DNA of 64,000 bases from Thuidium tamariscinum (Eukaryota > Streptophyta > Bryopsida > Hypnales > Thuidiaceae). A model generated the notes under the pieces. That model saw only the letters and a list, made by a program, of their open reading frames with translations, was not told the DNA's origin and did not search any database. The stretch is from the NCBI GenBank assembly GCA_947034885.2, contig OX344749.2:16259501-16323500 (forward strand). Direction: 5' to 3'. Positions 7,471-61,909 of the stretch are shown here, in pieces. Each line of letters opens with the position of its first letter. Positions within the stretch are counted from its first letter, which is position 1. Made by a program: the position numbers and the translations under genes.

Positions 7471-8694
7471 GCCTCCCCCTCCCCTCATTTCACAACCCTC
7501 TATTTCATTTCTCGAAACCTCTTTTGAAAATCTCTTATTTCACTTCTAGAAAACTCTTTTTATCAAACCTCTTTCGAAAACTCTCTCATACCACTTGCAT
7601 CTATTCTATCATCTCTATCATTTTCTCAAGTGATTACCTTGCAAAGTTTGGGGTCTTCTACTCTTGTTCTTTGACACACTTGAGTTTCCACTAGTATTCT
7701 ATTTTGAAGATTGATATCGAGACCATTCGATTTAAGTCTTTTGACAAGGGATTCACAGCCTGGATTGGCTTATCGAGGATCCCCCTAAGCTTAAACGGGT
7801 GATTTGGGTCCTTTTTTGTGACAAGGAAGTTGGGTAGGATCCATACTTCTTTTTGGCTCTTAGAGTAAGCGGAGTTCTGGCAGAACCATCCTAGGATTTG
7901 AGGTCCACACCTTGAAACGGCGAAGCTATCGCCAAATTTCTAGGGGCTTTTTGTCTTTTTTATTAGATTTACTCCAAAATTCGGGCTTGAAACACCCAGA
8001 CGACGGAGCTTTGAACTTACTTATACCGAAATTCCAATTTGGTATTTTGTAAAAGGGTCCCTTTAAAAGACCCCAAAGTTTGTGATACCCGCGGCTAGCA
8101 ACTGCCGGGTTTTAGAAAGGCCAAAATTTCACCGCGGACCAACAGCCAGGGGAAGCAGCCAGACCAGCCCAGCCAGGAAGAGCAGCCAGTACCGGCCCGG
8201 CCAGATCGGCCCAGCCGCCCACCGGCCCCGGTCACCAGCCAACAGTCGGCACTGTATCCGCAGCGGCACTGTCCAGCCAGCCGGCACTACCAGCAGTCGG
8301 CACTGAGTACAGATGGTTGGTTAACAACTAGCACGTACAGACTGGTTATGTTAACTTGACATCACATACATTGGTTTTATACAAAACCAAATGGGGTGAT
8401 ACCCCAAGGGGTCCCAATTTGCATTTTTTTTGGGAAAATTATACCACCTGGTGTGACTTTTAGGAGAAAATCTGAGGACTAAGTCTGAGCTTGAGTGTAG
8501 GAATTAATTTAGATTAGTTTCTCAAACTAGAAGGAAGTCAGAGAGTGTGAGAATTAGAGAGAAAAAACCCAAAACTCCCAAACTGAGTGAGAATTCCAAG
8601 TCCAGAGCAAATTAAGCAAGCCCAGAACTAGGTGAGGAGAGGGGAGCAAGGAAGGGCAGGTCTGATCTGGTCAACCAGAGTTGACCAGCCTCCC

Positions 8695-8830
8695 AACCAT
8701 ACTCCACCTAGATCAGAGCCCCCCAAACACACTCATCCAGATCAGAGTCCCCCCAACCACACTCCATCCAGATCAGAGCCTCCCAACACACTCCATCCAG
8801 ATCAAAAGACCTCCCAACCTTGGGAGGCAT
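8695..8830 (+). repeat. ~33-bp tandem repeats in the transcribed part of LTR A
   Basis: Four to five degenerate copies of a unit containing CCACACTCCATCCAGATCAG. They create open frames on both strands, which I treat as artefacts. LTRs B and C have different tandem repeats at the corresponding place (15431-15640), so this leader segment evolves by local amplification. Confidence 0.7.
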
Positions 8831-9397
8831 ATTAGCAGCCTCCAAAGTCAACCTAGAAGGGGTCTGGCTCACCAGAACTTCAAGAAATTCCCGTTGTTGA
8901 GATCCAGCACAAGCCATTCTCCAAAGATCTTCACCAAAATTGCAAGTATAAGCTCCAAGATCAAGCGCACAAGTGTGTGAAGAAGTGTGAGTGAAGGTTT
9001 AAGCATTAGCAATAGGGGAGGAAGAAGAAGGGAATTGGGTGGTGCGGAAAACCAAATAGAATAACTTGACTTTCTTAACCATGGATGTTTTAGATTAGAG
9101 ACAAATAGAGAAAAAACAAATAAAAGAATAGTTTGACTTTGAGAAGTTAGAGGTTTGCCAATTTGGAGAAAAGTTGGAAAACCTTAGTTGTAGTGGAATT
9201 GACTTTCAAAACCAATTAGTGGCTAATTTCAAAAATTAGATTTTATTAGGATATTGTATAAGTTGACTTTGGGGACTATTTAAAAGAAAAAGAAGGAGCT
9301 CGAAGGATAAAGAAAAATACAAAACAAAGGTAAGGAAAGGAGGGAGGTTTTGAAGGGAAATACCCCATTCAACGATATTCAAACAAAAAGCACCAAG

Positions 9398-9469
9398 ATG
9401 GAGGTGGAACGGGCGCAAATTGGAGGATTTATCGAATCACATGAAGACCTCGAAAACGCCATGATGGAG
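9398..9469 (+). CDS. Conserved 24-codon LTR start exon (copy in solo LTR A)
   Basis: The segment runs from ATG to GAG and is followed at once by GTTAGTCTTTGA, a plausible splice donor that also closes the frame after three more codons. The peptide begins MEVERAQIGG and ends with HEDLENAMME. Compared with the copy in LTR B (16256-16327), I count seven base differences, five synonymous and two replacing. That pattern suggests protein-level constraint in an LTR that is otherwise non-coding. In this solo LTR there is nothing left to splice to. Confidence 0.6.
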
Positions 9470-10344
9470 GTTAGTCTTTGAAATTTCTTTGTTGCCATTT
9501 CTTTCCATAATTTCCTTTTAGTCATAGAATTTAGCCAATAGCCTAGAAGCAATACGAATCTAGAATCATCCAAAAGACCAACGCCATAAGAAATTAGACA
9601 AAGTTAGAGTCAATCGGGGATTTAAACTTTTAGATTTAGAAAGTAAAAGTAGGAAGTGGAAAGCCATAAGCAATTCCGAGGAAAAGTAATTGACCGGTAA
9701 ATTTTGGTGAACCGGACAACGGTCAAAATTTACTTACGATCGATTTATCTAAGGAATACATAGTGGAAATTAACTTAGTAACTAGTAAGGATAGAAGGAT
9801 AAATCCAAAAGAATTAAACCCTTAGATAAAAAGGAGTTCAACAAGGTAAAAGTTGGATGAACCAGTCAACGGTCCAAATTTACCGTGAAAATTCACAATT
9901 ATCCAAAGTCAAAGATTAGGGATTTACCGTGGAAGGATAAAATCATTCCTATCAAGGTAAAACTCAAATCAACTATTTAGATATCCAAAGTTAAAGTAGT
10001 AAAAGAATAGTTAAACCAATACGCTAATTAGACTAAAAGATAATTAAGGAATAAGTTAGGGATAGAATCCTCTAGAGGTATCTTAGAACATAAAAAACCC
10101 GAGATTACTTAGAACTCTATCAACAAGCAATACGCTGGAAAGGAGTGAAACCTTAGCTAGAACCTTTGCTTATTTTTTAAATGTCAAACAAGATTGACTA
10201 AAGCAAGTAAAACCTTAGACTTCCACCAGTATTACAAAGTAGAAAACAACTGAAAAGACTTATCAAAAATTCAAAAACCTTAGAGTGAAAGTTATTCCCG
10301 CCTAGCAAGTGCAAGCGAGTTGATTAGGAGTAGGAAGTTAGGAA

Positions 10345-10363
10345 GATCCATTGCTTGGAAGGC
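10345..10363 (+). other. tRNA-Gly(UCC) anticodon-arm antisense motif, LTR A
   Basis: GATCCATTGCTTGGAAGGC is the reverse complement of a tRNA-Gly(UCC) anticodon arm as I recall it (core TGCCTTCCAAGCA). The motif is kept in every LTR of this window that reaches this region (11408, 17140, 37914, 42670, 53906). Confidence 0.6.
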
Positions 10364-10433
10364 GTAACTGGATTGCACGTAGGCTAGACACCCACTAAAA
10401 ATCACTCACCAAATAGTAGAACCTGGTTGTGTA

Positions 10434-10462
10434 CACTTTATTCCAAAGGTGGGAATAAAGCG
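10434..10462 (+). promoter_or_regulatory. LTR-end hairpin containing AATAAA, LTR A
   Basis: CACTTTATTCC and GGAATAAAGCG flank a 7-base loop, with one weakened pair near the base. The right arm carries the plant polyadenylation-type signal AATAAA six bases before the LTR end. Confidence 0.6.
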
Positions 10463-10473
10463 CCCACACATGC

Positions 10474-11856: not shown

Positions 11857-11928
11857 TGTGATCATATTGACTTCAAAATCCTCGTGCCCACCGAACAATT
11901 CCTCCCGGTGTATAAGCTCTACTTCCAT
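11857..11928 (-). CDS. Conserved 24-codon LTR start exon (diverged copy)
   Basis: On the minus strand an ATG opens a 72-nt frame beginning MEVE and containing HEDFE, followed directly by GTAAGTCTGTAA. That is a strong donor (GTAAGT), and the frame closes three codons later. Length, start motif MEVE, central HED[LF]E, a Met near the end and the donor position all match the copies in LTRs A, B and C, although the remaining codons and the flanking DNA are heavily diverged. This is the best evidence that the exon is real. Confidence 0.6.
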
Positions 11929-13491
11929 TCTGTTGATTTTGCACATAAAAGTGGTATTTGGTGTACCCTTTTGAAGCTCTCGTAATTTCTTTCTTGACCC
12001 TTCCTTCTTTCTTCGAGTGTCTTCTTTATCTTTTGAATTTCCTTCCTTTTCTTTTGGTGAGGTTCCAAAGTCAACCTATAAAAAATCCTAATAAAATCTA
12101 AACTCTTATTACTAACTAAATGGCTTATAAAGTCAAACCTTCCTACAACTAAGCTTTTCTAAACTTTTCCTTAAATTGGCAACTTCTAAATGGTCCCTAA
12201 GTCAAACTATTCTTTTTCTTGTCTTTTCTATTTGTTTTTTGTCAAACTAAAATATGGTTTCCAAAGTCAAAATGGCTCAAAGATTCCATCATCTCTCTCT
12301 CTCTTCCTTCTAAACAACAATTGAGTTTCCACTCTCTATTATTCTAGAGTTTGAGATTTGTGGAGAGAACTTGAGTTGAGTTGCAATTGGAATCAGATTG
12401 TGTTTGTAGGTTCAGAACTTCAAAAAATGAGGAGCCTTGCTCGGTTGCTAGAGGTCCAGCATGGGCTGATTTTGGGGTCCTGTACGTGAAACTGAGTGCT
12501 GGATACTGGTGGGTTGGGGGTAGGTGGCTTCCCAAAGGGTAGGAGTTGGTCAACTCAATATGACTTCAGATTTTGAGCCTGTTCGGCCAAGTTGAGCCCT
12601 CCTGGGTGAGCCCAAACCTTGGATTCAAAAACTCAATCTTTTCTGAATGATAGAAGGCCTTGTACCCCTGGAATTCAAGCATGCAGCTCTGGGTAAGAGG
12701 GAAGGCTGGACAACTCAGTTTGACTAACCCACCTTTGTATTTGGACTGCCTAACAGGCTTCCATTCTTTGAAATCAAAAACTATAATTTGCACTCTTAAG
12801 GTTTGCAATGATTGGGTGGTGTGAGAGACCTAATTGGTTTTCCCAATAGTACTATAGGTATTATGAGGGTTGGTCAACTCAGTTTGAACGCTAATGGCTA
12901 TTTTCTGTGGTCTTCCTTCTAACTAGTGACTTGGATCTAAGACTCCTTGGCTTCTCTCTTTGTTTTTATATCTAAAATAATTCTAATTTTTTCCTCTGGA
13001 GCCTAGAAATCGCCTCACTCTTCTTTGTTTAAAATCCAAAAGGAAAAAATAGTTTCCCAAAAATCTTACCCAAAATTCAAATGGTGAGGCATGTATGGTC
13101 CTTCATTTTTTCCCTTGGGTCCAGAACCCAATTTGAGTCTGGCCTTCTTGGACTATAATTGCAATAAGTACGCTGACCTCGAACTGACAAGGCCTGGGCT
13201 GCTGTGAGCCCCGTCATTGTCACTCAGGCCTCGGATTTTTCTTTTTTTCGCTTATTGCTCGTATTTAGGGTTATTATGGTTAAAAATCAAGTAAAAAGAG
13301 TGCTCACAGTAGGATTGATGCAATTCCTGCCAATGATGGAGAATTGGGTCTAATTATTTTGGAGTACCTTAAAAGACTCCTTAGAGCCAATTTCTACAAC
13401 TTATCAGGAGATTAGACATGATATTACGCGATTCACAGGAGATTGCACTAGCACCACGGGAGTCCGACAGTCTCCTACGAGCGTCACGGCG

Positions 13492-13599
13492 AAGCCAACT
13501 GGTAGAGATTCCCTTGTATGGGAATGATTCCTCCCCGGAGGAATTAAGCCAACTGGTGGAGATTCCCTTGTACGGGAATGATTCCTCCCCGGAGGAATT
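13492..13599 (+). repeat. 54-bp tandem duplication of a double hairpin
   Basis: Two copies of a 54-bp unit. Each contains ATTCCC...GGGAAT and the palindrome ATTCCTCCCCGGAGGAAT. LTR A has one copy (around 6700-6750) and LTR C has two (50259-50366). The duplication is therefore shared by B and C only. It lies in the U3 part, upstream of the TATA box. Confidence 0.8.
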
Positions 13600-14312
13600 A
13601 ATTCCGCCATAGTGCAATTTCTACTGCATTTAGACAGTGTGTGTTTCTAGCAAAACTTTGCACTTGTCATTAGGGGGCTTCCTAGAAGATCCCCTAAAAG
13701 TTTCGTAATTTTTTGGATTACGAAAATGACTCCATGGGAAGTCAACCGCTGTTACCGGCAATTCGAAATTCATAGAAAATTCCACGGTGATGGTAAAATC
13801 CCACTAAAAATTAAGATAGTATGTTTTAGCATAAATAAGCGTCCCGCCAAATTTCAAAACATTCTGACATCAACAAGTACCAGAACCGGCAGCGTAGACA
13901 AGTTTTGATGGTTTTACCAAAACTCTTGCAAGTTGACCGGCGCACGGGGAGCATACGGAGTCCGATTCTAGTCAACTTAGACTCTTTTCCAACATTCTTG
14001 GACCTTCCCGACAACCCTGGCTTGTCAAAACCTTTGGGAAAAATCAATTCCAAAAGATGGACTTTCCACCCTTTTTACCGATTCGTGAATGTTAGCTTTG
14101 GAGTGCATTTGGGCTCCATGAGTAAGGGGTAGGGGTTCCTTTAGACTAATTTGGGTCTTTTGGAGCTAATGGCGCTGTCCGTTTGGCGATCGGACCATTC
14201 CTCCAAAAGTTAGGATAGCTACAGTAGTAGGGTAGATTTTTAGATCGTTAATTTGGTTTTTTCTTAAGTTTGTTTTGTTCGTAACTTGAGGGGGGAGGAG
14301 GCCTTGGAAATG

Positions 14313-14320
14313 TATAAAAG
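14313..14320 (+). promoter_or_regulatory. LTR B TATA box
   Basis: TATAAAAG is embedded in GGAAATGTATAAAAGGCC and followed by a CCCCTCCCCTCATTCC pyrimidine stretch. It sits about 1.1 kb inside the LTR and should start the genomic RNA of the giant element. Confidence 0.75.
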
Positions 14321-15430
14321 GCCTCCCCCTCCCCTCATTCCACACTTCATACCTCTATTTCATTGACAACTCTTTTATCAAACCTTCAATTCCATTTCAA
14401 AAAGACTCTTTTCATTACCAAATCTCTCTTCAAAACCTTTCTTATACTACTTGCCTCCATTCCATCATCTCTATCATTGTCTCAAATCTCCATGACAAGT
14501 GATTCTCTTGCAAGGTTGGTATCCACCACTCTTGTCTTTTGACACACTTGATTTTCCATTAGCATTTTATGTTGAAGATTGATACCTACACCATTCGATT
14601 TAAGTCTTTTGACAAGGGATTCACAGCCTGGATTGGCTTATCGAGGATCCCCCTAAGCTTAAACGGGTGATTTGGGTCCCCATTGCACCAAGGAAGTTGG
14701 GAAGGATCCACACTTCTTTTTGGCTCTTAGAGTAGCGGAGCCCTGGCGGAGTCATCCTAGAATTTGAGGTCCACACTTCTAGTACGGCGAAGCTTCGCAC
14801 CTCCACAGAATATTTCCTTAGAAAATAGAGTCCTTTTGTTTCCCTTTAGTTTAGCCCCCCAGGTTATGTTAAGAATTATAGACAACTCCGGTTTAGTTTT
14901 GATTGAAAGGGTCCCCATTAAAGAGACCCAATAGTAGCTTGAGAATACCAAGTTTGAGGTTAACCAATTTTTAGTACGAGACCAGTAGTCCAGGCAGTAG
15001 CCAGCAGCCTGAATACAGACCAACGAGGCTAGCAATCCGGCGGTAGCCGGCCCGAACAGCAACTTAGCCGGCAGGCAGGCAGGCAGTCCGGCCACAACCG
15101 CTGGCAGTCAGAGGCCACGTGTCCGCTCGGTAGGTCACCCCACTCCCTTTCCGACCCCCCAGCTCACTCAGTCGGTTGCTTGATTGAGGGGGGTCGGCCA
15201 ATTTTCTCACATACATCACCATCATGAAGACTGATTTGGGAAAAACAAAGGGTCCAGGGCCAATTAATTAGACAATCAATTGGTGAGTGGGAAAGGGCTA
15301 GAAATCAAGGAAGAAGGGGCTCCCAATTTGCACCCAGTTTGAGGAAAAGGATAAATTAGCTTGGGAAAGTCTGAGGGTGAACCAGTGTGAGAATTCAGTG
15401 TGAGAATTCCAAGTCAGAGTGGGGGAGGTG

Positions 15431-15640
15431 AGAGTTCCAAAAATCAAACATCAGAGAAGAAGCCTCAGTCCAGCAACCAGGCAACCCAAATCAACATACT
15501 AGAGTAGGAAGGTGAGAGTTCCAAAAATCAAACATCAGAGGGGAGCCCCAGTCCAGTACACCAGGCAATCCCAAATCAGCATACCAGAGGGGGAGCCCAG
15601 TCCAGCATACCAGCAACCCAAATCAGCATACCAGGGGAAG
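15431..15640 (+). repeat. Imperfect tandem repeats in LTR B leader
   Basis: The phrase GGTGAGAGTTCCAAAAATCA occurs twice about 80 bp apart. Several CAGTCCAGCAxACCAGGCAA and CAAATCAGCATACCAG units follow. The ORFs crossing this stretch follow the repeat and are not called. Confidence 0.6.
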
Positions 15641-16255
15641 CCTGAGCCAGACCTCAGAAGGCTAGTGGTTGGGTCAACGCTCGTTGACCAGGCCTCACCC
15701 ACCATCTCCAACTCCATCTGGCCACCTTCCAGCTTACAGAGCCTTCAGACAATCTAAGCTCACTTGATGCATCAGATACAGAAGACACAATTTGATCTCA
15801 CTCAAATTCGAAGTCACAAGTATACAAGGGCAAGTTTGGAATGAGAGATTAGTAGTATAGAGAGAGTTAGACATAGTATCCCGTATTTGACCATTAAACT
15901 ATAGTTGAACTTTGACTTTGGAACCATAGTTTAGAATTGTTAGGAAGTCGAACAATAAAAAACGAAAACAAAAGAATCAATTGACTTAGAGACACTCTAG
16001 AATAGTTCCAAATTAGAGGAAAGTTAGAAAAAACTTAGTTGTCTTGAAGTTGACTTTTAAGACCATTAGCAATTAATTTCAAAAGTTAGATTATACTAGG
16101 ATATTTTATGAAGTTGACCTTGGAACCATTTTAAAGAGAAGGAAGGAGCTCAAAAGATAAAGAAAGCTACAAAACAAAGTTGGAGGAAGGAAGGAGATTT
16201 TTAAAGGAAAAAAACCCCAGTCAAAGGTATTCAACCAAAACACGAAAACACCAAG

Positions 16256-16327
16256 ATGGAGGTGGAGCGAGCACAAAATGGAGGATTTATCGAATCACAC
16301 GAAGACCTTGAAAGCGCCATGATGGAG
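16256..16327 (+). CDS. LTR-encoded start exon predicted to splice to ORF1
   Basis: Twenty-four codons from ATG (16256) to GAG, beginning MEVERAQNGG and ending HEDLESAMME, followed directly by GTTAGTC. ORF1 of the same element (17357 onward) has no ATG. Its open frame begins immediately after TTATAG, which works as a splice acceptor. Joining 16327 to 17357 is phase 0 to phase 0 and removes a 1,029-nt intron that contains the LTR end and the primer site. Exon length and position are conserved in LTR A, LTR C and the reverse LTR at 11857. The join is inference; the open frames and the splice-like sites are seen. Without splicing the frame stops after three more codons. Confidence 0.55.
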
Positions 16328-17139
16328 GTTAGTCTTTGAAATTCTTTTGTTTCCATTTTTTCCGTAATTTCCTTTTAGTCATAGAATTTAGCCATTAAGT
16401 AACACAAATCTAGAATTACCCAAAGTCCAACACCATAAAAAATTAGACAAAGTTAGAGTCAATAGGGAATTTAGACTTTTAGACTTAGAAAGTACAAGTT
16501 GAAAGTTGAAAGCCATAAGCAATTCCAAGGAAAAGTAATTGACAAGTAAATTTTGAACCAGTCAACGGTCAAAATTTACTTATGATCAATTTTATTTGAG
16601 GAATACAGAACGGAAATTAACTTAGTAAACTAGGAAAGGTAAAAGGATAAATCCAAAAGAATTAAACCCCTTAGATAAAAAAAGGAGTCAACAAGGTAAA
16701 AGTTGGGTGAACCGGCCAACGGTCCAAATTTACCGTGGAAGGATAAAATTATTCCTATTAAGGTAAAACTCAATTTAACTATTTAGGTATCCAAAGTTAA
16801 AGTAGTGAAAGAATAGTACGCCAATTAGGCTAAAAGATAATTAGAGAACAAGTTAGGGATAAAATCCTTTAGAGATATCTTTGAACATAAAAAACCCGAG
16901 AATACCTGGAATTATATCAATAAGCAAGACGTCGGGATTAAGTGAAGTCTTAGCTAGAACCTTTGCTTATTTGGAAAGGTCAAATAGGATTGACCAAAGC
17001 AAGTAAAACCTTAGAGCCTCACCGATAATTCAAAATCGAAAACAACTAAAAGACTTATCCTAAATTCAGAAACCTTAGAGTGGAAGTTATTTTCGCCTAG
17101 CAAATGCAAGCGGGTTGATTAGGAGTAGGAAGTTAGAAA

Positions 17140-17158
17140 GATCCATTGCTTGGAAGGC
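17140..17158 (+). other. tRNA-Gly(UCC) anticodon-arm antisense motif, LTR B
   Basis: GATCCATTGCTTGGAAGGC, located 108 bases before the primer-binding site that matches the 3' end of the same tRNA. It could pair with the anticodon arm of the primer tRNA. Confidence 0.6.
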
Positions 17159-17228
17159 GCAACTGGATTACACATAGGTTAGACACCCATTAGAGATCAC
17201 TCACAAAACAGTAGAACCTGGTTGTATA

Positions 17229-17257
17229 CACTTTATTCCAAGGGTGGGAATAAAGTG
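17229..17257 (+). promoter_or_regulatory. Perfect LTR-end hairpin with AATAAA, LTR B
   Basis: CACTTTATTCC and GGAATAAAGTG are perfect reverse complements (11 bp) around an AAGGGTG loop. AATAAA in the right arm is a candidate polyadenylation signal held in a stem. The hairpin ends six bases before the LTR end. Confidence 0.65.
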
Positions 17258-17266
17258 TCCAGATAA

Positions 17267-17283
17267 TGGTGCATCTGCGGGAG
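17267..17283 (+). other. Primer-binding site, tRNA-Gly type
   Basis: TGGTGCATCTGCGGGAG starts three bases after the LTR. It fits the complement of a plant tRNA-Gly(UCC) 3' end including CCA, as I recall it (TGGTGCGTCTGCCGGGAG), with one substitution and one missing C. This identifies 13203-17263 as the 5' LTR. Confidence 0.65.
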
Positions 17284-17356
17284 ACTAAGATAATCGGTAG
17301 AGATTAGTTTGACAAGTTTATTCAAAAAGATATTCAAAAGCATTTGTGGGTTATAG

Positions 17357-17909
17357 GAAGGAGAGATTGGCTCACCTATTAACCTCACTCCACTTGAGGT
17401 TTGGGAAAATCACCGCAAGGATTGGCCAAGGAAGTACTATAACGAGGAAGAGGACGGCTCTAGCGAGGATGAGGACAACAAGGTCTTGAATCTCCGGGAC
17501 TTGTTGCTTGGCCCTGCTCAACTTGGACTCACCTATAAATATTGGGAGTCATTAGCAAGACAATACTTACGAGACCCCAACCGGCACACTCCTTCGATTG
17601 CATACACCCGGGCTACCGGAGCATTTGGAGTGTCCGAGGAAGAAGTTACTAAGTCCCTCATATTCTATTGGGAGGTGGTGCTAACGACGTGGAAGTACGA
17701 AAACGAATTGGTGAAAGCTTGCTTCGAAGCCAGATTTCCATCTTACAACACCCACGAGGCATTGAACACACTCCCACGCATTGATATTTGATATTACCCC
17801 CCCGTGGCAGTTAGTGACGGCTCCCTTTATCAATTTGGTGCAACCAACATCGAGGCATTTCGCTTCATCGAGAATCCTTACACCGAGCCGGCCAACTTCC
17901 GGACGTGGC
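17357..17909 (+). pseudogene. ORF1 of the giant element, 5' part, before the nested insertion
   Basis: An open frame from the acceptor-like TTATAG at 17351-17356, rich in acidic residues at first (EEEDGSSEDED), then a folded-looking segment (KYWESLARQYLRDPNRHTP). One in-frame TGA lies at 17789-17791, and the frame continues to 17909, where the Athila-like element is inserted in the sequence CGGACGTGGC. It resumes at 36425 without a shift. There is no ATG near its start, which fits a start supplied by the LTR exon at 16256. I do not recognise the protein family. Its place between primer site and gag is that of the extra ORF of Ogre-type elements. Confidence 0.6.
17905..17909. repeat. Target-site duplication GTGGC, left
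   Basis: GTGGC precedes TGTAGATGG at 17910 and follows CAGACTACA at 36420-36424. Removing the element plus one GTGGC restores the ORF1 reading frame. Confidence 0.95.
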
Positions 17910-19857
17910 TGTAGATGGATAATTTAATAGTATGGAAACTATTGAAAAATATCTATAGTAGAGTTCGTTCACAGGGAGGAAGGAATCGGCCAATAGATAA
18001 ACCTAAGGATGACTATTTGTCGTTAATTCCTAAGGATTGCACAATAGAAAATGAGGAAAACACTCAATCCCACTCTCACCATAGACATAACCCATAGCCA
18101 TATTATAATTGAGTTAGATGAAACTTATCCATGGTTTTGATCTTTATTCCATAGCCCTAGCTTTCTCCAATTCCAACCACCAAGTGATCTCCAATTGATT
18201 TTTTTAAAGGCTTGACTGCATCATCCATTGCTCCATTCTTCCCAGCATGGCTTCTAACTCCAATTGATTCACCAAATCTCCTTTTCTTTAATTCACCAAT
18301 TGGTCTCTCTCAAATAACCTCACAGTTATAATAGAACTCTCAATGGTATACAACAATTCAAAACTATAGGATGTTCTCTCTTTCACTGATTCTATCGATT
18401 TACTTCACTACAGCCATCTCATCACACACACACAATTGCAAAATAAAATCTATAGACCTAAATACAGCCAACAACCATATCCACTATGGCTTCAAGCACC
18501 AACCAACACATCCATTACAATACACTCTCACATGTCATAGCATACATGCATACAATAGAAAAATCAGCAATCTACATGTAACACACAATTGACCCCACTC
18601 ATTCAAATTAATAAATTCAGCCCATAGACTCCATCAAACACAGACATGCACACATTGCAATTTGCAATTGAATTTCCACTTTGTATTCATCTCCGAAAAG
18701 TATTATAGGGTGATTGCAAGAAACACTTGTCCTATTTTTTGTCCCCTTGACCTCCAACAGGTAGTTTTTTGCTCATAACTTTTGCATTTTTTGCGCTATC
18801 AACTTGAAATTTTGACTAAAGGTGCACAAAAAAGTTTTATATGTTGTGTAATTTTTTCAATTTTTTTAAAATTATTTTACTATTTTTAAACTGCCCCCGA
18901 TTGGCTGTCTACCTTGGCCATTTTGGGGGTTTTTAGTCCTATTTTTGACCCAAAAATGCAAATTTTGAGCTGAAAATTGGCATGCTTATATCTATAGTAT
19001 ATTTACACAATCCCTAAAAAGGATTTTTGAAAATATGAAACTATCCAACTTCCACATGTCGTCAAAGTGGCTGACTTTGCGCAAGTGTAGAGAATAGAAT
19101 TTATCTTTCCAAAGATGAAATTTATTGGAAAAGAAAGACCTTTACTTGAAGAAAAAATGGATTTTTTATTTTCATTTTTTGAATTTTTTTACTATTTTTA
19201 ACAAATTAGTGAAAAAAGAGCTATTTTCATTGTATTTTCCATTGTCTATAACATTTAGAGAAAAAATTTCTTAGGTCTGAATTTCAAGAGACATAATATT
19301 CTCATTGCTCTTCAAATTATCCATATTTTTTTCAATTTAAAAAAAATTTATTTCAAAGGGTCATAGGACTCACAGGACTCATTGATTTTGAGCCATTTTG
19401 AGCCAAAATCGGTAAGTGTTTCTTGCAACGACCCTACAATTAATCCGCATAGTATTTCACAGCCACCGTGCTCTGTAAAAACTATTGACTCACATCCACA
19501 GACACTAACACCGCAACTATAGACTCGCTCCTGCACACACTGATTGTACTAAAACTATTGCTCACACCTACTGCCGGCCTCCACTGCCGCAGGAGCTCTG
19601 GTCTCTCTACCAGACTGACTTCCCCTCCGCTGACAATAGCTTTAACTACCAATTCAACCTCCAATAGTAACCGCCTTCAATTGACAATGGCCATTCATCC
19701 CATAGATTGAAAACTACAGTTGATAATACTACCATAGCTGAAATAGACTACCAACAATGGAAAGTTAACCCAAAAATACTCTCACACTATAGAAAATGTG
19801 TGAAGTTACCATAACAAAAAGAAATTAAACAAAATTTACTATAGCTCTCAGACTACA
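17910..19857 (-). repeat. Left (3') LTR of the Athila-like element
   Basis: It matches 35203-36419 throughout but is 731 bp longer, because an inverted-repeat element sits in it at 18707-19434. It is rich in CTATAG, CAATAG and CAATTG hexamers. Confidence 0.9.
18707..19434. mobile_element. 0.73-kb inverted-repeat element, copy 1 (in LTR)
   Basis: Ends: GGGTGATTGCAAGAAACACTTG on the left and, read inward from the right, GGGTCGTTGCAAGAAACACTTA. That gives terminal inverted repeats of about 22 bp with two or three mismatches. The other LTR supplies the empty site (AGTATTACAATT). The filled site reads AGTATTAT then the element then TACAATT, compatible with a 2-3 bp duplication (TA, or TAC/TAT). 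No coding capacity. It is a non-autonomous DNA transposon of uncertain superfamily. Confidence 0.75.
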
Positions 19858-19870
19858 TAGCCCTCTTCCC
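19858..19870 (-). other. Polypurine tract of the Athila-like element
   Basis: On the minus strand GGGAAGAGGGCTA directly precedes the 3' LTR start TGTAG. This is the expected position and composition for plus-strand priming. Confidence 0.7.
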
Positions 19871-19976
19871 AGCTAGTTGCGCCCCCGCAACTACAAACTA
19901 TAGACCTGGAACCACCTGCAACCAACAACAACTATGGATTGAAAAAACTGAAAGCACCCACGATCTGGCTCTACCA

Positions 19977-22391
19977 TCACTTATGCTTCAATAGACCCTT
20001 GGCTGCCTTCGGTGTTGAACTTGAAGCTCCCCCGAGGATACGCTCCACCTGGCAAGAACTATTGTTGTTGTGCCACTCCAGCGGCATCCTCAATAGTTCT
20101 CCCCGGCCCCTGCTTAAAGTCAATACGTTGTGAGCATCCATCTGCTTGTGGAGCTTTTGGTACCCCTCCCTGCACCTTTCAAACTCCTTAGAGCTCTGCA
20201 TCTGTGTGAAGGTATCCATAGCTGCAAATCGGCTTCCCTTGTACTCATTCATGATGACATTGTGAGCACCTTGGAGAAAGTGCATGGTGCACATGAGCTC
20301 AAACAATCGTAGCCGCCTTGCCGATAGATATTTGATCTTGATGTAGATCTGCCCATCCTGTCCTTGGCGTCCTCCAATGCGGGGATCCAGTATCAATTGA
20401 TACTCTTGACACCAAGCAGCCAAGGCGTTGCAAAACACCGCTTGTCTATAGCATATGGGATTTGTGTGGTCTCTATGGCTGAGATAAAACTGTTGAAAAC
20501 CTGCCACACAATTGTCTACTGTATCCCACGTTCCGTCCATAAGGCACCAATTGTACTAGGGTGTATCCAGTCTATCGGTAACTCGCCATTGATACCTCCT
20601 CGGTGTAGAACACAATCGAGGGTCTTGAGCGATCAATGGTGGCACCCCTGGTTGGCGCATTCCCTGCTCTTGGTGAATGAGAACTTCTATTGGATGCAAT
20701 AGAATCTCCGCTTGGCTCCCGAAATCCTTCCCCATCCATAGTAAAGCCTCCCACGATAGTGAATCCGGTTGATGCTCCCTCCTGACAAACAAGTTGGCGT
20801 ACCTCCCCAGGAATCTATTGTCTTCCATCGTTGTCTCGTACAATGGGCTCCAATCGTCCAAATCCGGCCCCACACCATAGAGAATCGGCGGCCTCACCAC
20901 CAATTGATGCGCTGCCTTCATCCGACTATCGCTCTCCACGTTGAAAGGCAATAGTGCCCTCGACCCCACCGTTGAGGCTAACTGCTTCAAGCGGCCCTCG
21001 TGAAACCTATAGGTGTAGAAGTAAATGGAAGGGTGGATATCCACCTGATTCGCCCGAACCACCCTATCCTTGCACAATTGGATCATCCTCGTGGGCCATT
21101 CGGTATCCTTAAACCGCTCCACCAATTGATCCAGACGCTCCTTCCACTCCACTATGGTTCCCCAATTCCATAGTCCATCATACCTATCGAAGCCTTGGAG
21201 AATTGGCCTAGTCCAGCTCTCGCATACTATGACACGGCTGTCAGCACCCATAGATTTCTCCAGCGCTCGCCTTATGTCTTGCTGCCGCTCCACCTTTGCA
21301 CTATAGAGAAAGGTTCTGGCCGCCACATCCCCCATCAATAGATAGGCCTTGAAGGGATCCTCCACCATGAACGCCCTCCTCACCAGCATTTCCGCAAATA
21401 GATTCTCCAATCCATAGCTCTGGCTCTTCACCCATAGTCGCTCAAATTGATCCACGTTCAAACAATCGCCACACTGCACATTCATCAATAGAAAGAAGAC
21501 CTCGCAATCCCACCTATAGGCCTGCTCCACTCGCTGCACAGGAGGTAGATGCTCCATTAGGCTCAATAGATCCTCCGCCTGCAAGACTTTGCCCCGTCGG
21601 GTATCTATAGATACCACCTGCGAATCAGGTTGAGGGCTACCATTGCCTTGAAGAATTTTCTTCAATTGCTCCACCTCTGCCTCCAATACAGACTTGTCAC
21701 ACACCAATTGCTCGTTTGACCCTCTCTCCTGTCGGAGTTCTTCCTCCAATTGCGCCACATTGTTCTGCACCTCCCACCACGATTGATGCATGCCCTTCCT
21801 CTGCTCCTCCAGTTTGTTGTGCTCCTCTCGCTGGGCCGCCCTCACCTCGTCCAATTGTCGTTGAAACCATAGCTCTCGCGTCGCAGCATCCTCCTGCGCT
21901 TTCTTCAATTGTCCCTCCAATGCCGCAATCTTGTTCTCCTCCTCTCCTCGCGCCTTGATTTCTTTGTCCAATTGCGCCAGCTCCTCTTACATCTTCAATT
22001 TCTTTGCCAATAGCTCCGGCTGAGATGCCTTCTTCTTCTGAATTGGCGCGGCACCCTCTTCTTCCTTCACCTGCATCAATGGAGTCACCACCGAGCTCGA
22101 TTGTCCTCCAGGGCTTGCTATAGTCATAGGAGAAGTCCCAATTGATGTCAGCCCCGGCTCTAGCTTCACTTTCTTCACCTGGCTCTATTGAATCGTCCCC
22201 TCACGCACCCCCATCATCAAACAATCGTCATCTCCTTCCGAATCCATAGTCTCCTTCAATGCTGCTCGCTCCAATTGCGCATCCTTCCCTGCCTCCGTCA
22301 TCTTGTCTTCAGCTCGTTCCATCTTAACCCTAACAATTGCACTTTGAAAATCTCTCACAATTTCGCTCACAATTGTTGCAACTTTCTCTCG
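19977..22391 (-). pseudogene. Third ORF (envelope position) with coiled coil, broken by three stops
   Basis: A single reading frame of nearly 800 codons on the minus strand, between integrase and the 3' LTR. It is interrupted by in-frame TAG near 22182, TAA near 21974 and TAG near 20553, with no frameshifts. N-terminal part: charged, with KKVKLEP and KKKA basic patches. Then comes a long heptad-type coiled coil (roughly 21990-21650), followed by a Trp- and Arg-rich globular region with motifs such as WNWGTIVEWKERL and FYTYRFHEGRL. No signal peptide or membrane segment is evident, so envelope function is not supported. Frame retention over ~2.4 kb suggests it was coding until recently. The start is uncertain (GTG at 22370 or a later ATG). 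Family not recognised. Confidence 0.6.
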
Positions 22392-22630
22392 CTACACTCG
22401 CAATGGCTCCGCACTCCCAAGATTATGGATTTTTTTCCCCTCGCGCGCACAAATGCCACAATGTTGCACTCACAATTGCTTCCCTCCTCTTGTACTATAG
22501 TTTCAGCCCTCCTCCCAAGATGAAGGCTCGGTTGTTGGCAACAAACTCCCAACTATCATTTCTCTCGGCGGCTACTCATGATTCCATTGATGTCCACTAT
22601 CGCTTCATTCCCCCTCTCATTCCCTCATGA

Positions 22631-23681
22631 TTCTATTTCTACCCACCTTTTGCATCTATTGAATTTGAAATTTTATACTTGCATTTACTCCCAAATCCTA
22701 AGTACTATAGGTATCTCCCATAAATGGCCCTTAATTAAATACCCCTATTGATATTATACCTTATCCCATTCCTATTACATCCTATTATTATCATGTTGTT
22801 GTTTTTTGATTGTTTTTTAAAAATTATTATGCATTAATTGTTCCCATAATTTTGCAATATTTTTATCATGTTTTATTTTGCTTACATTTTGTTTCTTTTT
22901 CTTCTTTCAATTATAATTCGAATTACTATAATTATGTTAATTTCTAATTTATTTTTTTATCATGTTTTCAATTTTTTTTTTTTAATTTAAATTTATCATT
23001 TTGTTTATTTATATTTTCTTCTCATTTTTTTCTTATATTTTTTCTTTTTCTTTTTATATTCCTGTTATCATGTTTTGTCTTTACGTTTTTTTTTCATTTT
23101 CATTTTTTTTTCTTTAATTTAATGTAATTTAATTTATTATCATTATCATAATTTTTTCTCTCCTTCTATAGTCGTTATCGATACTGACTATAGCTTCAAC
23201 TATCGTATCCCTCACTATAGCTATACTGAACTATCGATTACATCTATAGTCACTGTCTCTCTTTCTATCCGACTATTGATATCATTTTTTCTAAATTCTA
23301 ATTTTAATTTTTTAATTTTTTTTAATTTTTAATTTTAGTTTTAATAACTCTATGGCTCACCACCCTCATAATTTTCTCTCTTATTAGTCCATCCCATACG
23401 TTCTTTTCTCGCCACTCTTAATTATATATTTTTATTTTTATTTTCATGCTATATTATTTTTTTCTTTTTACTGTCTTTTTTTAAAAAAATATCCCAAATA
23501 TTATTTAAATATTGCGTATATTATAATTAACCCTTTTTCTAACCACTATAGCACTTAATAATGCCAAATTAAAATAAACCAACCACTACACTCAAAAAAT
23601 AAAAATTTCCCACCAACCACTAACCACCTAACAAAGTATTAAATACTCCTTCTCCCCTATTTAACATAAGCCGACCCCGGC
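22631..23681. other. AT-rich spacer between integrase and third ORF
   Basis: Mostly poly-T-rich on the + strand and without coding frames. A cluster at 23160-23280 holds four CTATAG and one CTATTG in 120 bp, plus several CTATCG. It may hold a promoter or splice sites for the third ORF, but I see no clear TATA box. Confidence 0.5.
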
Positions 23682-26600
23682 TTAATGATAATAAAGCTTG
23701 AGTCTATATCCATTGATTCGAGTAGGGAGAAATTTACCCTCAAAATCCTTCAATTGTGTAGATCCATTGGGATTAATATCGGTGACTTCATACGGACCCA
23801 ACCAATGCATTTGTAACTTCCCCGGAAACTTAAAAAATCTACTATCATACAATAGGACTAAATCGCCAACTTTAAAACTTTTTGCACCCAATTTACTATC
23901 ATAAAAAGATTTACGACGCTTTTGCATTGCATAGGTATGTAAATAAGCCTCCCTTCTCTTTTCATCTAATGCTTCCAATTGAGCCAACCTTATTTTTAAA
24001 CTATTGTCTTCATCTAATCTATTTTCAATAGCTATTCTTAATGAAGGAATTTCATACTCTATAGGCAAGATGGCCTCCTGACCATATACCAATTGAAATG
24101 GAGTAAATTTTGTGGTGACCTTATATGCAACTCTATAGGCCCATAATGCTCCCCATAACTTATCATCCCAATCTGTAACTGACTCAACTATAGTTTTAGT
24201 TAAAATCTTGCACAATATACCATTGGTTTTCTCTGTCTGGCCATTGGCCCTAGGGTGATACGGTGATGTTTTTCGATGTTTAATAAGAAATGTATTAGTT
24301 AGTTGTTCTATAGTCTCATTGAGAAAATGTGTACCACGATCACTTATAAGCTCTCGTGGACATCCAAAACGAGAAACAATATTCTCATATAAAAATCGAG
24401 CAACTGTCTGAGCATCATCATGCCTAGTAGCCAATGCTTCTGCCCACTTTGTGGCATAATCGGTGGCTACTAAGATGTACCGTTTACGACCCTGTTTAGT
24501 GGCCGGCGCTATAGGTCCTACGAAATCAATCCCCCACTTTTCAAAGGGGGCTAAAGCTAAAATGGGTACTAATGGCATTGCGGTGGTTGGGGTAGGTCTA
24601 CCCACCCATTGACATGGGTCACATTTACGGACATATTGGTGTGCATCATAAAACATTTTTGGCCACCAATACCCGGATGTCAAGGCTTTTCTTGCGGTAA
24701 CATCCCCCGCAAAATGCCCACCACATGCATCAACATGACACCCCTCTAACACTAAAGGTATTTCATTCATATATAGACAACGCCTCAGTAAACCATCTTT
24801 CCCTTTTTTATACAATACATCCCCTAATAAAGTGTAAGGACCACATTTATAAATAAAAGCTTTCAACTGTGAAGGACTTAATCCATTTGGTGTAATAGTA
24901 GATTTTAAATAATTTAAAATTTCAGCATATTCTGGTTGTATAATATCAACCTCAAATATATGTGCATCTGGTAATTGATCATCAATAGGTTTTAAAACTT
25001 CAACTGCCAATGGTGCCAGACGGGAAATTTGATCGGCATTTCCATGGCTTTTCCCCGGTCTCACTACTATAGAAAAATCAAATTCTTGCAACAATAGAAC
25101 CCACCGGGCCAAGCGGCCACTTAAATCTGGTTTATTCACTAAATATTTAAGGGCGTCATGGTCCACATAGAAAATAAAAGGATAGTCTAATAAATAATGA
25201 CAAAATTTTTGCACGGCAAAAATCATGCTCAATGCCTCACGATCGGTTGTTGTGTAATTTTTCTCAGCGGCTATTAGTTGTCTGCTAGCAAAATAAATAG
25301 GATGGTCTAAATTTTTATTATCTTTTTGACTCAAGACACACCCTAAGGCTATGTTAGAAGCATCAACATATACATGAAATGGCTTAGACCAATCCGGTGG
25401 AATTAACACCGGGGCACTACATAACTTTTCTTTTAATTTATCAAAAGCTTCCTCACATTCCCCATCCCAAATGGGTCGAGATCCTATTTCCAATTTTTTT
25501 AATAATTTAGTTAAGGGAGAAGCTATAGAGGCATATGAACCAATAGCTCTCCTACAATAACCAGTTAACCCAAGGAATCCCCTAACCTCTTTTACCGTTC
25601 TAGGCCTAGGAAAATCTTTAATCAATTGTACTTTATCCGGATCTAACTCAATTCCTTTTTGACTCACAATATGACCCAATAGTTTACCCGAGGGAACCAC
25701 AAATTGACATTTACTAGCATTAAGAGAAATGCCAAATTTATGGCATTGATCAAAACATTGCATCAAGTGATCTGCATGGTCTATTTTTTTTCCATAAACA
25801 CAAAAATCATCAAGGAAGATTTCCATGAATTTTTGCAAAAATGGAAGAAAAGCAACCATCATCAATCGTTGAAATGTGGCGGGTGCATTGCACAACCCAA
25901 ACAACATTACTGCTGCAGCATATGTACCCCAGTCTGTAGTAAAAGTAGTTTTCAATTGATCGGCTAAAGCTAATCCAATTTGGTTATAGCCAGAGAAGCC
26001 ATCTAAAAAAGAATAAACTTCATGGCCCGCCACAGCATCTAAAATAGAATCTGTGAAGGACAATGGAAAATAATCCTTTTTGGTTGCCTCATTTAGTTTC
26101 CTAAAATCCTGACATATTCTAATTTTACCGTTCTTTTTAGGGACAATTACAATAGCACTAACCCACTCACTATAGGGAACTAGGTAAATAAATCCCATTT
26201 CAAGCAATTTCTCAATCTCCTCTTTGACTAACAAAGAATATTTTGAATTTAATCGACGTTGTTTTTGCCTAACTGGCTTAGCATCTTCCTTCAAATTAAT
26301 ATGATGTTCACAGATATCGGATGGGACTCCCCTAAGATCCTTATAGGTCCATGCAAATGCAGACATATGTTTCTTAAAATTTTTTCCCCAATAGTCCCTT
26401 TCATGTGATAGTAAAGATTTACTAATTTTTATAATTTTAGGCTCACCTTCACCCTCACTTAGCAATAGATCACAACATTGATCTGGTGGCACATGCTTAG
26501 CTATAGGAACTGAATTCATAAAGTCAGAATGAGTAGACAAATCCTCATCTGTACTATAGGTTGGTTCTTCCTCAGATTGACTAACTCCATAGACTGTTTT

Positions 26601-27869
26601 ATCATTTAGCCAAGCCCCTATTGCTTTATCTGAATCATCATCAATAGAACAAGGGATCATATATTCCCCTGGCCCAACATTTTTATACTTCAATTGTTTA
26701 ATTTTATTAAAAGGCCCTTGCTGGTCCTTGGCATGGACTCTATTGGCTTCTAATTCATCCATATCTGTACTATAGCCAATATCACTAGTGACGTCAGGTG
26801 AATGCCATTGTGTTTCCCCTTGATAACGAGAAGGATACATATTTATTTTAATTTTATTAAGACCTTCTCCTATTGTTAAAATTCCCTTACCCCAGTCATC
26901 TTTGGCATGGGCCTGGTATAACCAAGGCCGGCCTAATAATATAGGATAAGACACATGCGGTGTACTTGGTTGAAAAATCAGAAAATCTATAGGATAAACA
27001 AGGCCTGCTATTGAAGTTAGAATTTTAGGCAATATTCCCAATGGCTTGACCCTACTTTGGTCAGCCATTCGCAATATTAATTTAGTCTCTTTCAATCCAC
27101 TCAATTGTAAACTTGCCATTGTATCAAAATTCATTAAATTTACGCTTGAACCACCATCTACTTGTACCCCTTGTATAACCATCCCATCAATTTGGACATC
27201 AATTGTTGGAGCACCTGGATCAGGGCTCAAATAAACTTCATTTACTATAGGTTTCGTTCTCCTCCTAATCAAAGTTGATTGGAGAAGAGAACGATAATGA
27301 GGTGCTACTCCTAACAATTGTCTTATAGAAATATCAGCTTTAATTTTACCCAAATCTCCCAATAAATCATAAGGATCCATTCCTTGCATTATACCTATTG
27401 GTTTTAATTTCCTCATTTTACGGCTTTTAGGATTTATCCTTGATATACCCACATCACCTCCTATAGGATTTGGAGGCTCTATTTGTGATTTCCAATTATT
27501 ATTTCCTTCATTTAATTGTAATAAAGTTCCACTCCTAATAGGAATTCTTCTCACAGGTTCTATGGATGCTGTGGGTACATTCAATTGTTTTAAATTATGA
27601 TCCAAATTTATTCTATTGGGACTGGGATCTATAGCAACTTGTTTCAATTTTTGGGCCTCATCCACTGGAGTTTCTATAGGCCATAATTCTCTGGGCATCC
27701 CAGCAGACAATTGATTCTCACTCCCTATATCTATAGGTACTGACTGTGGATTCCACTCAATTGTTTTCAAACCATCTATAGTTCCCGAGGGGGTTGATCC
27801 TCCATGTTTGGAATTATAGATGGGACTTGTTCTATAGTCACAGTTTTCCTCTTTATAGGTTCTATAGTC
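23682..27869 (-). CDS. pol: Pol polyprotein: protease, RT, RNase H, integrase
   Basis: Open for almost 1,400 codons without a stop. Using residue 1 at 27770: protease with VDGGSSVNLM (about 204); reverse transcriptase about 510-690 with RICQDFRKLNEAT, MLFGLCNAPATFQR and FLDDF in place of the usual YxDD; RNase H with VYVDASNIALG (about 790); integrase HHCC finger (CGGHFAGD...CDPCQ, about 1010-1060), catalytic core with WGIDFVGP, LISDRGTHF and HPRANGQTEKTNG, and a GPY-type end (LGPYEVTDINPNGS). No chromodomain is seen. These give copying of the RNA and insertion of the DNA copy. The frame lies at -1 relative to gag and overlaps its end by about 94 nt; no ATG is needed if it is made by frameshifting. 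It is the best-preserved protein frame in the window, although the element's gag is broken. Confidence 0.9.
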   Translation of the reverse strand, partial: DYRTYKEENCDYRTSPIYNSKHGGSTPSGTIDGLKTIEWNPQSVPIDIGSENQLSAGMPRELWPIETPVDEAQKLKQVAIDPSPNRINLDHNLKQLNVPTASIEPVRRIPIRSGTLLQLNEGNNNWKSQIEPPNPIGGDVGISRINPKSRKMRKLKPIGIMQGMDPYDLLGDLGKIKADISIRQLLGVAPHYRSLLQSTLIRRRTKPIVNEVYLSPDPGAPTIDVQIDGMVIQGVQVDGGSSVNLMNFDTMASLQLSGLKETKLILRMADQSRVKPLGILPKILTSIAGLVYPIDFLIFQPSTPHVSYPILLGRPWLYQAHAKDDWGKGILTIGEGLNKIKINMYPSRYQGETQWHSPDVTSDIGYSTDMDELEANRVHAKDQQGPFNKIKQLKYKNVGPGEYMIPCSIDDDSDKAIGAWLNDKTVYGVSQSEEEPTYSTDEDLSTHSDFMNSVPIAKHVPPDQCCDLLLSEGEGEPKIIKISKSLLSHERDYWGKNFKKHMSAFAWTYKDLRGVPSDICEHHINLKEDAKPVRQKQRRLNSKYSLLVKEEIEKLLEMGFIYLVPYSEWVSAIVIVPKKNGKIRICQDFRKLNEATKKDYFPLSFTDSILDAVAGHEVYSFLDGFSGYNQIGLALADQLKTTFTTDWGTYAAAVMLFGLCNAPATFQRLMMVAFLPFLQKFMEIFLDDFCVYGKKIDHADHLMQCFDQCHKFGISLNASKCQFVVPSGKLLGHIVSQKGIELDPDKVQLIKDFPRPRTVKEVRGFLGLTGYCRRAIGSYASIASPLTKLLKKLEIGSRPIWDGECEEAFDKLKEKLCSAPVLIPPDWSKPFHVYVDASNIALGCVLSQKDNKNLDHPIYFASRQLIAAEKNYTTTDREALSMIFAVQKFCHYLLDYPFIFYVDHDALKYLVNKPDLSGRLARWVLLLQEFDFSIVVRPGKSHGNADQISRLAPLAVEVLKPIDDQLPDAHIFEVDIIQPEYAEILNYLKSTITPNGLSPSQLKAFIYKCGPYTLLGDVLYKKGKDGLLRRCLYMNEIPLVLEGCHVDACGGHFAGDVTARKALTSGYWWPKMFYDAHQYVRKCDPCQWVGRPTPTTAMPLVPILALAPFEKWGIDFVGPIAPATKQGRKRYILVATDYATKWAEALATRHDDAQTVARFLYENIVSRFGCPRELISDRGTHFLNETIEQLTNTFLIKHRKTSPYHPRANGQTEKTNGILCKILTKTIVESVTDWDDKLWGALWAYRVAYKVTTKFTPFQLVYGQEAILPIEYEIPSLRIAIENRLDEDNSLKIRLAQLEALDEKRREAYLHTYAMQKRRKSFYDSKLGAKSFKVGDLVLLYDSRFFKFPGKLQMHWLGPYEVTDINPNGSTQLKDFEGKFLPTRINGYRLKLYYH

Positions 27870-35199: not shown

Positions 35200-35202
35200 A
35201 AA

Positions 35203-61904: not shown

Positions 61905-61909
61905 TCTAC

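What the first reader, a model, noticed from the sequence alone, without database searches (positions are those of the whole stretch)
16256..17420. LTR-encoded start exon spliced to an ATG-less ORF1
Seen: a 72-nt ATG frame in the LTR ends exactly at GTTAGT. ORF1 inside the element opens exactly after TTATAG and has no ATG. Both junctions are phase 0, and the 1,029-nt intron would remove the primer site. The exon is kept at exactly 24 codons in LTR A (five synonymous and two replacing differences) and, strongly diverged but with MEVE and HED[LF]E, in the reverse LTR at 11857, where the donor is GTAAGT. Known: Ogre-type plant elements use introns. Inference: the LTR supplies the start codon of a spliced subgenomic mRNA.
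Basis: partly seen in the sequence, partly recalled or inferred. Interest (0 to 1): 0.88.

Follow-up and report, generated by a model that had tools for sequence, protein, structure and literature searches.

The report
Start codon carried in retrotransposon LTR
A jumping gene in this plant-like genome appears to keep the start of its first protein inside its repeated end and to join it to the rest by splicing, while the same start makes a tiny peptide if the RNA is left unspliced.

Summary
LTR 13203-17261 carries a 72-nt ATG frame (16256-16327) ending at GTTAGT; ORF1, without ATG, opens after TTATAG at 17357. Copies in the window's own genome strengthen the case and complicate it. In 40 scored LTR copies of this type the block is exactly 72 nt in 40, has ATG in 39 and donor GT in 39, with no gap pattern while 13 flanking 72-nt windows have 5-15. 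In the reverse-LTR type, diversity by codon position is 0.054/0.065/0.278. Of 31 ORF1 loci examined, 24 have a recognisable in-phase LTR start exon, of several types. But the frame ends in a conserved stop just after the donor: Leu and stop codons vary only synonymously while the donor's third positions are invariant. ATG is also depleted in all frames from TATA box to gag, so an ATG-less ORF1 does not prove splicing. Best reading: one AUG with two uses, ORF1 start exon when spliced, short upstream ORF when not. No RNA was available and no intronless junction was seen; a non-AUG start of ORF1 remains the main rival.

The parts
13203..17261 (+). 5' LTR (LTR B), TG...CA, of the Ty3/gypsy-like element
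   Evidence: 99.8% identical to 49970-53996; ends read
14313..14318 (+). TATA box (TATAAA), same motif in LTR A (7463) and 3' LTR (51079); presumed promoter
   Evidence: ATG depletion starts after it
16256..16327 (+). LTR-borne start exon / first 24 codons of the upstream ORF (MEVERAQNGGFIESHEDLESAMME)
16328..16339 (+). splice donor GTTAGT and in-frame tail Val-Ser-Leu-stop
   Evidence: GTTAGT in 39 of 40 copies, following CTTTGA in 40 of 40
16328..17356 (+). predicted intron (1,029 nt) that would remove LTR end and primer site
   Evidence: ATG-depleted: 3 seen, 9.9 expected
17267..17285 (+). primer binding site for tRNA-Gly(UCC); this copy differs slightly from most relatives
   Evidence: pattern match in 17 of 30 ORF1 loci; tRNA-Gly(TCC) genes with the complementary end in the same genome
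17351..17356 (+). splice acceptor TTATAG
   Evidence: TATAG kept in L086, L087, L089, L090; TATAA in L088
17357..17909 (+). ORF1, first part (no ATG in frame; one in-frame stop)
   Evidence: 66 protein matches in the genome, some being two pieces of one locus
17910..36419 (.). nested LTR element inserted in ORF1, target duplication GTGGC
36425..36879 (+). ORF1, second part, to its stop (no ATG in frame)
36973..37635 (+). gag, with its own ATG
   Evidence: Pfam PF03732, E 6.3e-9
45567..46184 (+). aspartic protease region
   Evidence: weak Pfam PF13650, E 7.7e-4, below the curated cut-off
49970..53996 (+). 3' LTR, cut short at its end
53022..53093 (+). identical exon copy in the 3' LTR
6406..10469 (+). 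LTR A, related LTR copy
9398..9469 (+). exon copy in LTR A
11857..11928 (-). exon copy of the second type (MEVELIHREELFGGHEDFEVNMIT) in the reverse LTR, donor GTAAGT
38396..38449 (-). third-type exon (MAMMDVAWSEEDRIHGTE, donor GTGGGC) in an inverted LTR arm
   Evidence: same type in front of ORF1 elsewhere
41951..42004 (+). third-type exon (MATMDVAWSEEDRIHRTE) in the opposite LTR arm

Best explanation
The LTR carries a bifunctional leader ORF. Transcription starts at the LTR TATA box near 14313 (inferred). Ribosomes meet the AUG at 16256. If the RNA is spliced at 16327/17357, the 24 codons become the N-terminus of ORF1, a roughly 360-residue protein of unknown function that has no start codon of its own; this mRNA has lost the primer site and cannot be copied. 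If the RNA is not spliced, the same frame ends three codons later, and ribosomes can resume scanning through the ATG-poor intron and ORF1 to the gag AUG at 36973, while the RNA keeps its primer site. Splicing would thus separate ORF1 messenger from genomic/gag RNA. Shown by sequence: coding nature of the block, conserved donor, conserved stop, phase match, Met-poor ORF1. Inferred: splicing, resumed scanning, promoter use.
For: Block without gaps in 40 copies, open in 38. A crude neutral simulation along the copies' tree expects 20.5 copies with stops (2 seen, P 0.02) and 22.5 without ATG (1 seen, P 0.005). Second-type block: pi by codon position 0.054/0.065/0.278 in 21 sequences, none with a stop; L105, frameshifted, was left out of the 21. 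Donor codons have third positions invariant in 21 of 21, whereas the next Leu (CTG, CTA, TTG, CTC) and stop (TAA, TGA, TAG) change only synonymously. In-phase start exon recognised for 24 of 31 ORF1 loci, GT in 22 of the 24, no stop in 21. Among 30 cut ORF1 loci, 15 have frames of 200 or more codons; 10 of these have no Met and none has one in its first 16 residues. In the B family (5 sequences) third-position excess starts at the acceptor. ATG depleted on the sense strand only, from TATA to gag.
Against: No RNA evidence. No intronless copy: two junction probes gave only half matches among 40 scored of 984 and 40 scored of 161 candidates; weak evidence, since spliced RNA lacks the primer site. 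In the first LTR type codon bias is weak (shared variants 6 synonymous, 14 replacing, like the controls; segregating sites 13/9/15, P 0.22). In F2 the frame after the donor also looks coding (17 synonymous, 9 replacing variants). In F4 the third-position excess lies before the acceptor and is absent in the 45 nt after it; F2 is ambiguous. Donors of types F2 and L090 lack G at +5. Acceptor AG is lost in L088 and, read by eye, in 3 of 12 F2 loci; the F4 acceptor (GAAG) is poor. Seven of 31 loci showed no usable exon in the DNA held. In the B family an ATT in good context near the ORF1 start is kept in six loci, as a non-AUG start would be.
Confidence: 0.65

Rival explanations
1. The block is only an upstream ORF: a 27-codon regulatory peptide (56 codons in most F2 copies). 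ORF1 is started at a non-AUG codon by ribosomes that resume scanning, as in rice tungro bacilliform virus ORF I, and leaky scanning through the ATG-poor ORF1 reaches gag.
For: Stop after the donor conserved at codon level; ATG depleted in all frames of intron and ORF1; F2 frame stays coding-like past the donor; an ATT codon followed by GG near the ORF1 start is kept in wB, L086, L087, L088, L089 and L090; precedent for an AUU start and leaky scanning through AUG-less ORFs in RTBV (PMC5902531, passages).
Against: Third positions of the donor hexamer are invariant while most neighbouring codons vary synonymously; frames differ in length and sequence between types, yet the representative of each type reaches a Val codon that reads as a donor; by eye no near-cognate start is shared by the ORF1 N-termini across families.
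Confidence: 0.25
2. The splice exists, but the LTR donor mainly serves other acceptors (gag or downstream sequence) and the match to ORF1 phase is a by-product.
For: Gag lies in the same frame as ORF1, separated by stops; other acceptors were not tested.
Against: ORF1 is Met-poor and lacks any other AUG start; gag has its own ATG, with the start MPPK in 19 of 30 loci.
Confidence: 0.06
3. Chance: an unremarkable ATG frame in a long LTR and an ORF that happens to follow TAG.
For: ORF opening after TAG has a one-in-three chance; codon bias within the first LTR type is weak.
Against: No gap pattern in 40 copies against 5-15 in each of 13 flanking windows; codon bias in the second type, P 0.0016 by a simple binomial on distinct alleles that ignores relatedness; recurrence in several LTR types.
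Confidence: 0.02

Closest known systems
Rice tungro bacilliform virus leader uORF spliced to ORF IV (Caulimoviridae)
   Same: A short ORF in the leader is fused by splicing to a distal ORF, and on unspliced RNA it is a short uORF; ORFs without internal AUG are leaky-scanned (PMC5902531, passages).
   Different: RTBV has no LTR (recalled) and its spliced target is a distal ORF, not one in front of gag; its first ORF starts at AUU. Here the exon lies in an LTR, is copied at both ends and survives in LTRs that have lost their internal region.
Ogre and other Tat/Athila (OTA) Ty3/gypsy elements of plants
   Same: Long LTRs (up to about 5 kb), extra ORFs, partial splicing in Ogre (PMC6317226, passages).
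   Different: The Ogre intron lies between gag-protease and RT ORFs; no start exon in the LTR was described in the passages seen. ORF1 here matches no Pfam domain. PBS is tRNA-Gly; recalled, not looked up: Ogre uses tRNA-Arg.
HTLV-1 HBZ-SP1 antisense transcript
   Same: Transcript starts in an LTR and its first exon is spliced to the main exon (PMC6731619, passages; that its start codon lies in the LTR is recalled).
   Different: Antisense, 3' LTR, animal retrovirus; not in front of gag and not removing the primer site (recalled).
Retrosat2 / RIRE3 / RIRE8 of grasses
   Same: LTRs of about 3 kb or more and an ORF0 of unknown function in front of gag-pol (PMC3485330, passages).
   Different: No splicing or LTR start exon in the passages seen ('intron' and 'start codon' occur 0 times in the text, 'spliced' once); ORF0 was found in grasses only.
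BARE1 and Bagy2 spliced plant retrotransposon RNAs
   Same: Plant LTR elements with unspliced and spliced RNAs (PMC3735527, passages).
   Different: In the passages seen, BARE1 splicing frameshifts pol and Bagy2 splicing makes an env subgenomic RNA; the LTR is not said to give the start codon.

Membership tests
LTR retrotransposon (Ty3/gypsy type) | paired near-identical LTRs TG..CA, tRNA primer site, gag | tested here: met
   LTRs 99.8% identical, the 3' one cut short; PBS complementary to tRNA-Gly(TCC) genes of the genome; gag PF03732
LTR retrotransposon (Ty3/gypsy type) | reverse transcriptase and integrase in this copy | tested here: inconclusive
   no RVT_1 or rve domain in the frames scanned (44832-45287, 45567-46184, 46365-47399); 47400-49969 was not scanned for domains; the nested minus-strand element has both
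Ogre / Tat (OTA) lineage | archaeal-type RNase H and RT/INT phylogeny | not testable with these tools
   the domains were not found in this copy; too few letters could be fetched from relatives
Ogre / Tat (OTA) lineage | intron between gag-protease and RT ORFs | not tested
   no RT ORF found in this copy
Spliced leader-uORF system (RTBV-like) | short leader ORF with donor in frame, in phase with a start-less ORF | tested here: met
Spliced leader-uORF system (RTBV-like) | spliced RNA observed | not testable with these tools
   no RNA data held
Spliced leader-uORF system (RTBV-like) | strong hairpin directly after the uORF (shunt) | tested here: inconclusive
   fold of 16240-17420: -252.5 kcal/mol over 1181 nt, 94 long-range pairs, no shuffled control run

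The most novel reading that the evidence does not exclude
A whole superfamily of LTR retrotransposons in this genome uses a bifunctional leader ORF carried in the LTR as an RNA-fate switch: spliced, it is the start exon of an AUG-less ORF1 and destroys the primer site; unspliced, it is a short peptide ORF that lets ribosomes go on to gag. Because LTRs are duplicated and survive without their internal region (a probe of F2 exon plus ORF1 start had 984 first-look candidates, and 39 of the 40 scored matched the exon side), the genome is sown with ready start-codon exons with donors that neighbouring host genes could capture.
Probability: 0.5. Interest if true: 0.75.

Novelty: new variant of a known kind. 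Interest (0 to 1): 0.62.

Why it matters
How one retroelement transcript serves both as messenger and as genome is a standing question. Here a single AUG placed in the LTR would tie that choice to splicing: the ORF1 mRNA cannot be reverse-transcribed, and the copyable RNA cannot make ORF1. It would explain why ORF1 is easily missed by annotation (no start codon), and it predicts that LTRs without internal regions can donate start exons to host genes. It is directly testable with long-read cDNA.

Tried and rejected
Shunt hairpin: folding 16240-17420 gave no structure that I could call convincing, and no control was run. Relatives outside the genome: ORF1 second half had no significant protein match; the first half had no relative in IMG/VR, and three pattern matches there were not used; an F2 ORF1 found two unnamed proteins covering 61-64% of it, neither carrying the exon. 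Pfam: no domain in the ORF1 pieces or in four relatives. Structure of ORF1: mean pLDDT 38.6, unusable, no fold search made. Spliced retrocopies: none among the scored hits. Codon tests in the first LTR type: weak, reported as such. Host identity: 363 Mb in 19 contigs and named pol relatives of highest identity in Riccia, Marchantia and Adiantum suggest a bryophyte, perhaps Sphagnum; a guess, not tested.

Full report
What was claimed.

The sequence. The claim about the letters is right. The element has LTRs at 13203-17261 and 49970-53996 (99.8% identical), a primer site just after the 5' LTR, ORF1 (17357-17909 and 36425-36879, split by an LTR element with target duplication GTGGC), and gag from 36973 (PF03732). 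A pattern for the primer site matched 17 of 30 ORF1 loci; the genome holds five places with the complementary tRNA end, and the two I fetched are tRNA-Gly(TCC) genes. ORF1 has no in-frame ATG in 336 codons; at the Met rate of four other frames of the element (21 of 924) that has a chance of about 0.0004.

First complication. ATG is scarce on the sense strand from the TATA box to gag. In LTR B, seen/expected: U3 18/14.4; leader 4/9.1 and 3/9.6; intron 3/9.9; ORF1 1/7.7 and 2/6.0 (the last P 0.066); gag 16/13.7. The reverse triplet CAT is near expectation. LTR A repeats it (5/19.6 and 2/8.4); the reverse LTR shows only a trend (8/12.9 and 2/5.7, P 0.10 and 0.07). In ORF1 the counts by frame are 0/3/0 against about 4.7 each. 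In the 11 frames of 150 or more codons among the 20 loci where an acceptor pattern was found, ATG counts by frame are 7/9/7 against CAT 27/52/74. Scanning from the leader to gag would select for this, so a Met-free ORF1 is not by itself proof of splicing, and unspliced RNA is probably translated. For the other families the 1,500 nt upstream were counted but not tested against an expectation.

Copies of the block. The genome search scored 40 of 263 candidates. I used all 40: 37 fetched plus B, C and A from the window. The block is 72 nt in 40 of 40, ATG in 39, stop-free in 38, donor GT in 39. No gap pattern falls in it, against 5-15 in each of 13 flanking 72-nt windows, and its diversity is the lowest (0.090; others 0.113-0.273). 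Parsimony changes by codon position are 22/20/34, and a crude neutral simulation expects more broken copies (20.5 with stops, 22.5 without ATG; P 0.02 and 0.005). Against this, diversity by codon position is 0.059/0.099/0.112 and shared codon variants are 6 synonymous and 14 replacing, no better than control windows. None of the 37 fetched copies matched the B primer-site/ORF1 sequence by BLAST in the DNA fetched. In 32 of them, by my reading, the LTR end is followed by unrelated sequence; in the other 5 (L013, L017, L029, L030, L041) it was not located. They are therefore probably solo or 3' LTRs.

The reverse-LTR type. 19 of 20 blocks are exactly 72 nt; L105 is 71, with a stop, and was dropped from the counts that follow. 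With the window copy and L059, 20 of 21 start with ATG and 21 of 21 are stop-free; diversity by codon position is 0.054/0.065/0.278. In the codon table the two codons that make the donor, GTA and AGT, have invariant third positions in 21 of 21 (in four sequences a first-base change removes the GT). The next codon varies as CTG, CTA, TTG, CTC, all leucine, and the next as TAA, TGA, TAG, all stops; after that non-coding variation begins. So the hexamer is held as nucleotides and the frame as codons up to the stop. One other degenerate codon of the block (GTC, codon 20) is also invariant at its third position, so the donor signal is suggestive and not beyond chance.

Other families. ORF1 protein search gave 66 matches from 70 candidates, all scored, several being two pieces of one locus; 30 loci were cut. 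Of these, 15 have stop-free frames of 200 or more codons; 10 have no Met, and in none does one occur in the first 16 residues. Looking upstream of 31 loci (five replaced by longer stretches of the same places, L089 added, L091 left out), I recognised a start exon in 24: first type in wB, L086, L087; second type in L059, L088; third type (MAMMDVAWSEEDRIHGTE, donor GTGGGC or GTGGGT) in six loci; F2 type (MESRDDFDGEVVGEYLHMMMFDDGTMEIYAEE, donor GTAAAC or a variant) in eleven; and single types in L080 and L090. The templates for F2, L080 and L090 came by eye, so finding them there again is not independent. At the aligned start 21 of 24 have ATG (L069 and L081 have an in-frame ATG elsewhere, L088 none at the start), 21 of 24 are stop-free and 22 of 24 have GT. 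Exon lengths 45, 54, 66, 72 and 96 are multiples of three (L069 aligned over 42 nt), matching phase-0 acceptors (TATAG, ACAG, TGTAG, GAAG). Seven failed: L066, L067, L068, L072, L076, L082 without a recognisable exon and L078 with a frameshift. Acceptor AG is lost in L088 and, by eye, in 3 of 12 F2 loci. In the B family (5 sequences) third-position excess begins at the acceptor and is absent just before it; F2 (12) is ambiguous, and F4 (8) shows the opposite near the acceptor.

Second complication. In F2 (11 copies) the frame after the donor still looks coding for about 24 codons (17 synonymous, 9 replacing variants; distinct alleles by codon position 6/3/17), with 8 of 11 copies sharing a stop at codon 56 and a hydrophobic tail. 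Unspliced translation therefore seems selected there too. In third-type exons the stop after the donor is not always kept: L061, L075, L081 and L089 read on.

Interpretation. The simplest account of invariant donor letters plus a codon-level conserved stop is double use of one AUG: start exon of ORF1 when spliced, short upstream ORF when not. The unspliced RNA keeps the primer site and reaches gag through ATG-poor sequence. A close parallel is rice tungro bacilliform virus, whose leader uORF is fused by splicing to ORF IV and whose AUG-less ORFs are leaky-scanned (PMC5902531, passages). The same virus also supports the rival, since its ORF I starts at AUU; in the B family an ATT followed by GG near the ORF1 start is kept in wB, L086, L087, L088, L089 and L090. 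Ogre elements are spliced elsewhere (PMC6317226, passages). Searches for a described LTR start exon in plant retrotransposons found none in their listings; these cover only the open papers held.

What is not shown. No transcript was seen. Junction probes found no spliced retrocopy among the 40 hits scored for each. ORF1 function is unknown: no Pfam match and an unusable structure model.

Noticed in passing
37819-42784: Two LTR arms of a third type stand in inverted orientation inside gag and are split by a 1.75-kb element whose inverted copy (93%) lies at 42821-44565.
   Followed up: partly
23682-27869 (minus): Nested Ty3/gypsy pol frame of 1,395 aa, stop-free, with RT, RNase H and integrase; highest identity among listed named proteins is to Riccia and Marchantia, while unnamed metagenome proteins reach 76%.
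   Followed up: partly
58725-61910 and 63635-64000: Tandem satellite array: copies match at offsets of about 175 bp (74%) and better at about 351 bp (87%), as if the unit were a dimer.
   Followed up: no
57291-58286 (minus): 331-aa open frame with no Pfam match, not clearly part of a transposon.
   Followed up: no
49100-49235: Long inverted repeat around a short T-rich loop, seen by eye, close to the 3' end of the element; could be a miniature insertion.
   Followed up: no
L071:920-1100: F2-type leader ORF runs past its donor into a hydrophobic tail (LIFILIVLLLSFF) with a coding-like substitution pattern: possible 56-residue membrane peptide.
   Followed up: partly
F4 loci, e.g. L074 just after the acceptor: A short out-of-frame ORF (MSGGFPT, once MFGGFPT) overlaps the start of ORF1 in 7 of 8 F4 loci listed.
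   Followed up: no
37 own-genome LTR copies (L012-L048): 32 of 37 copies end in unrelated sequence after the LTR, so most look like solo or 3' LTRs; among the 40 best hits only the window holds a copy followed by ORF1.
   Followed up: partly
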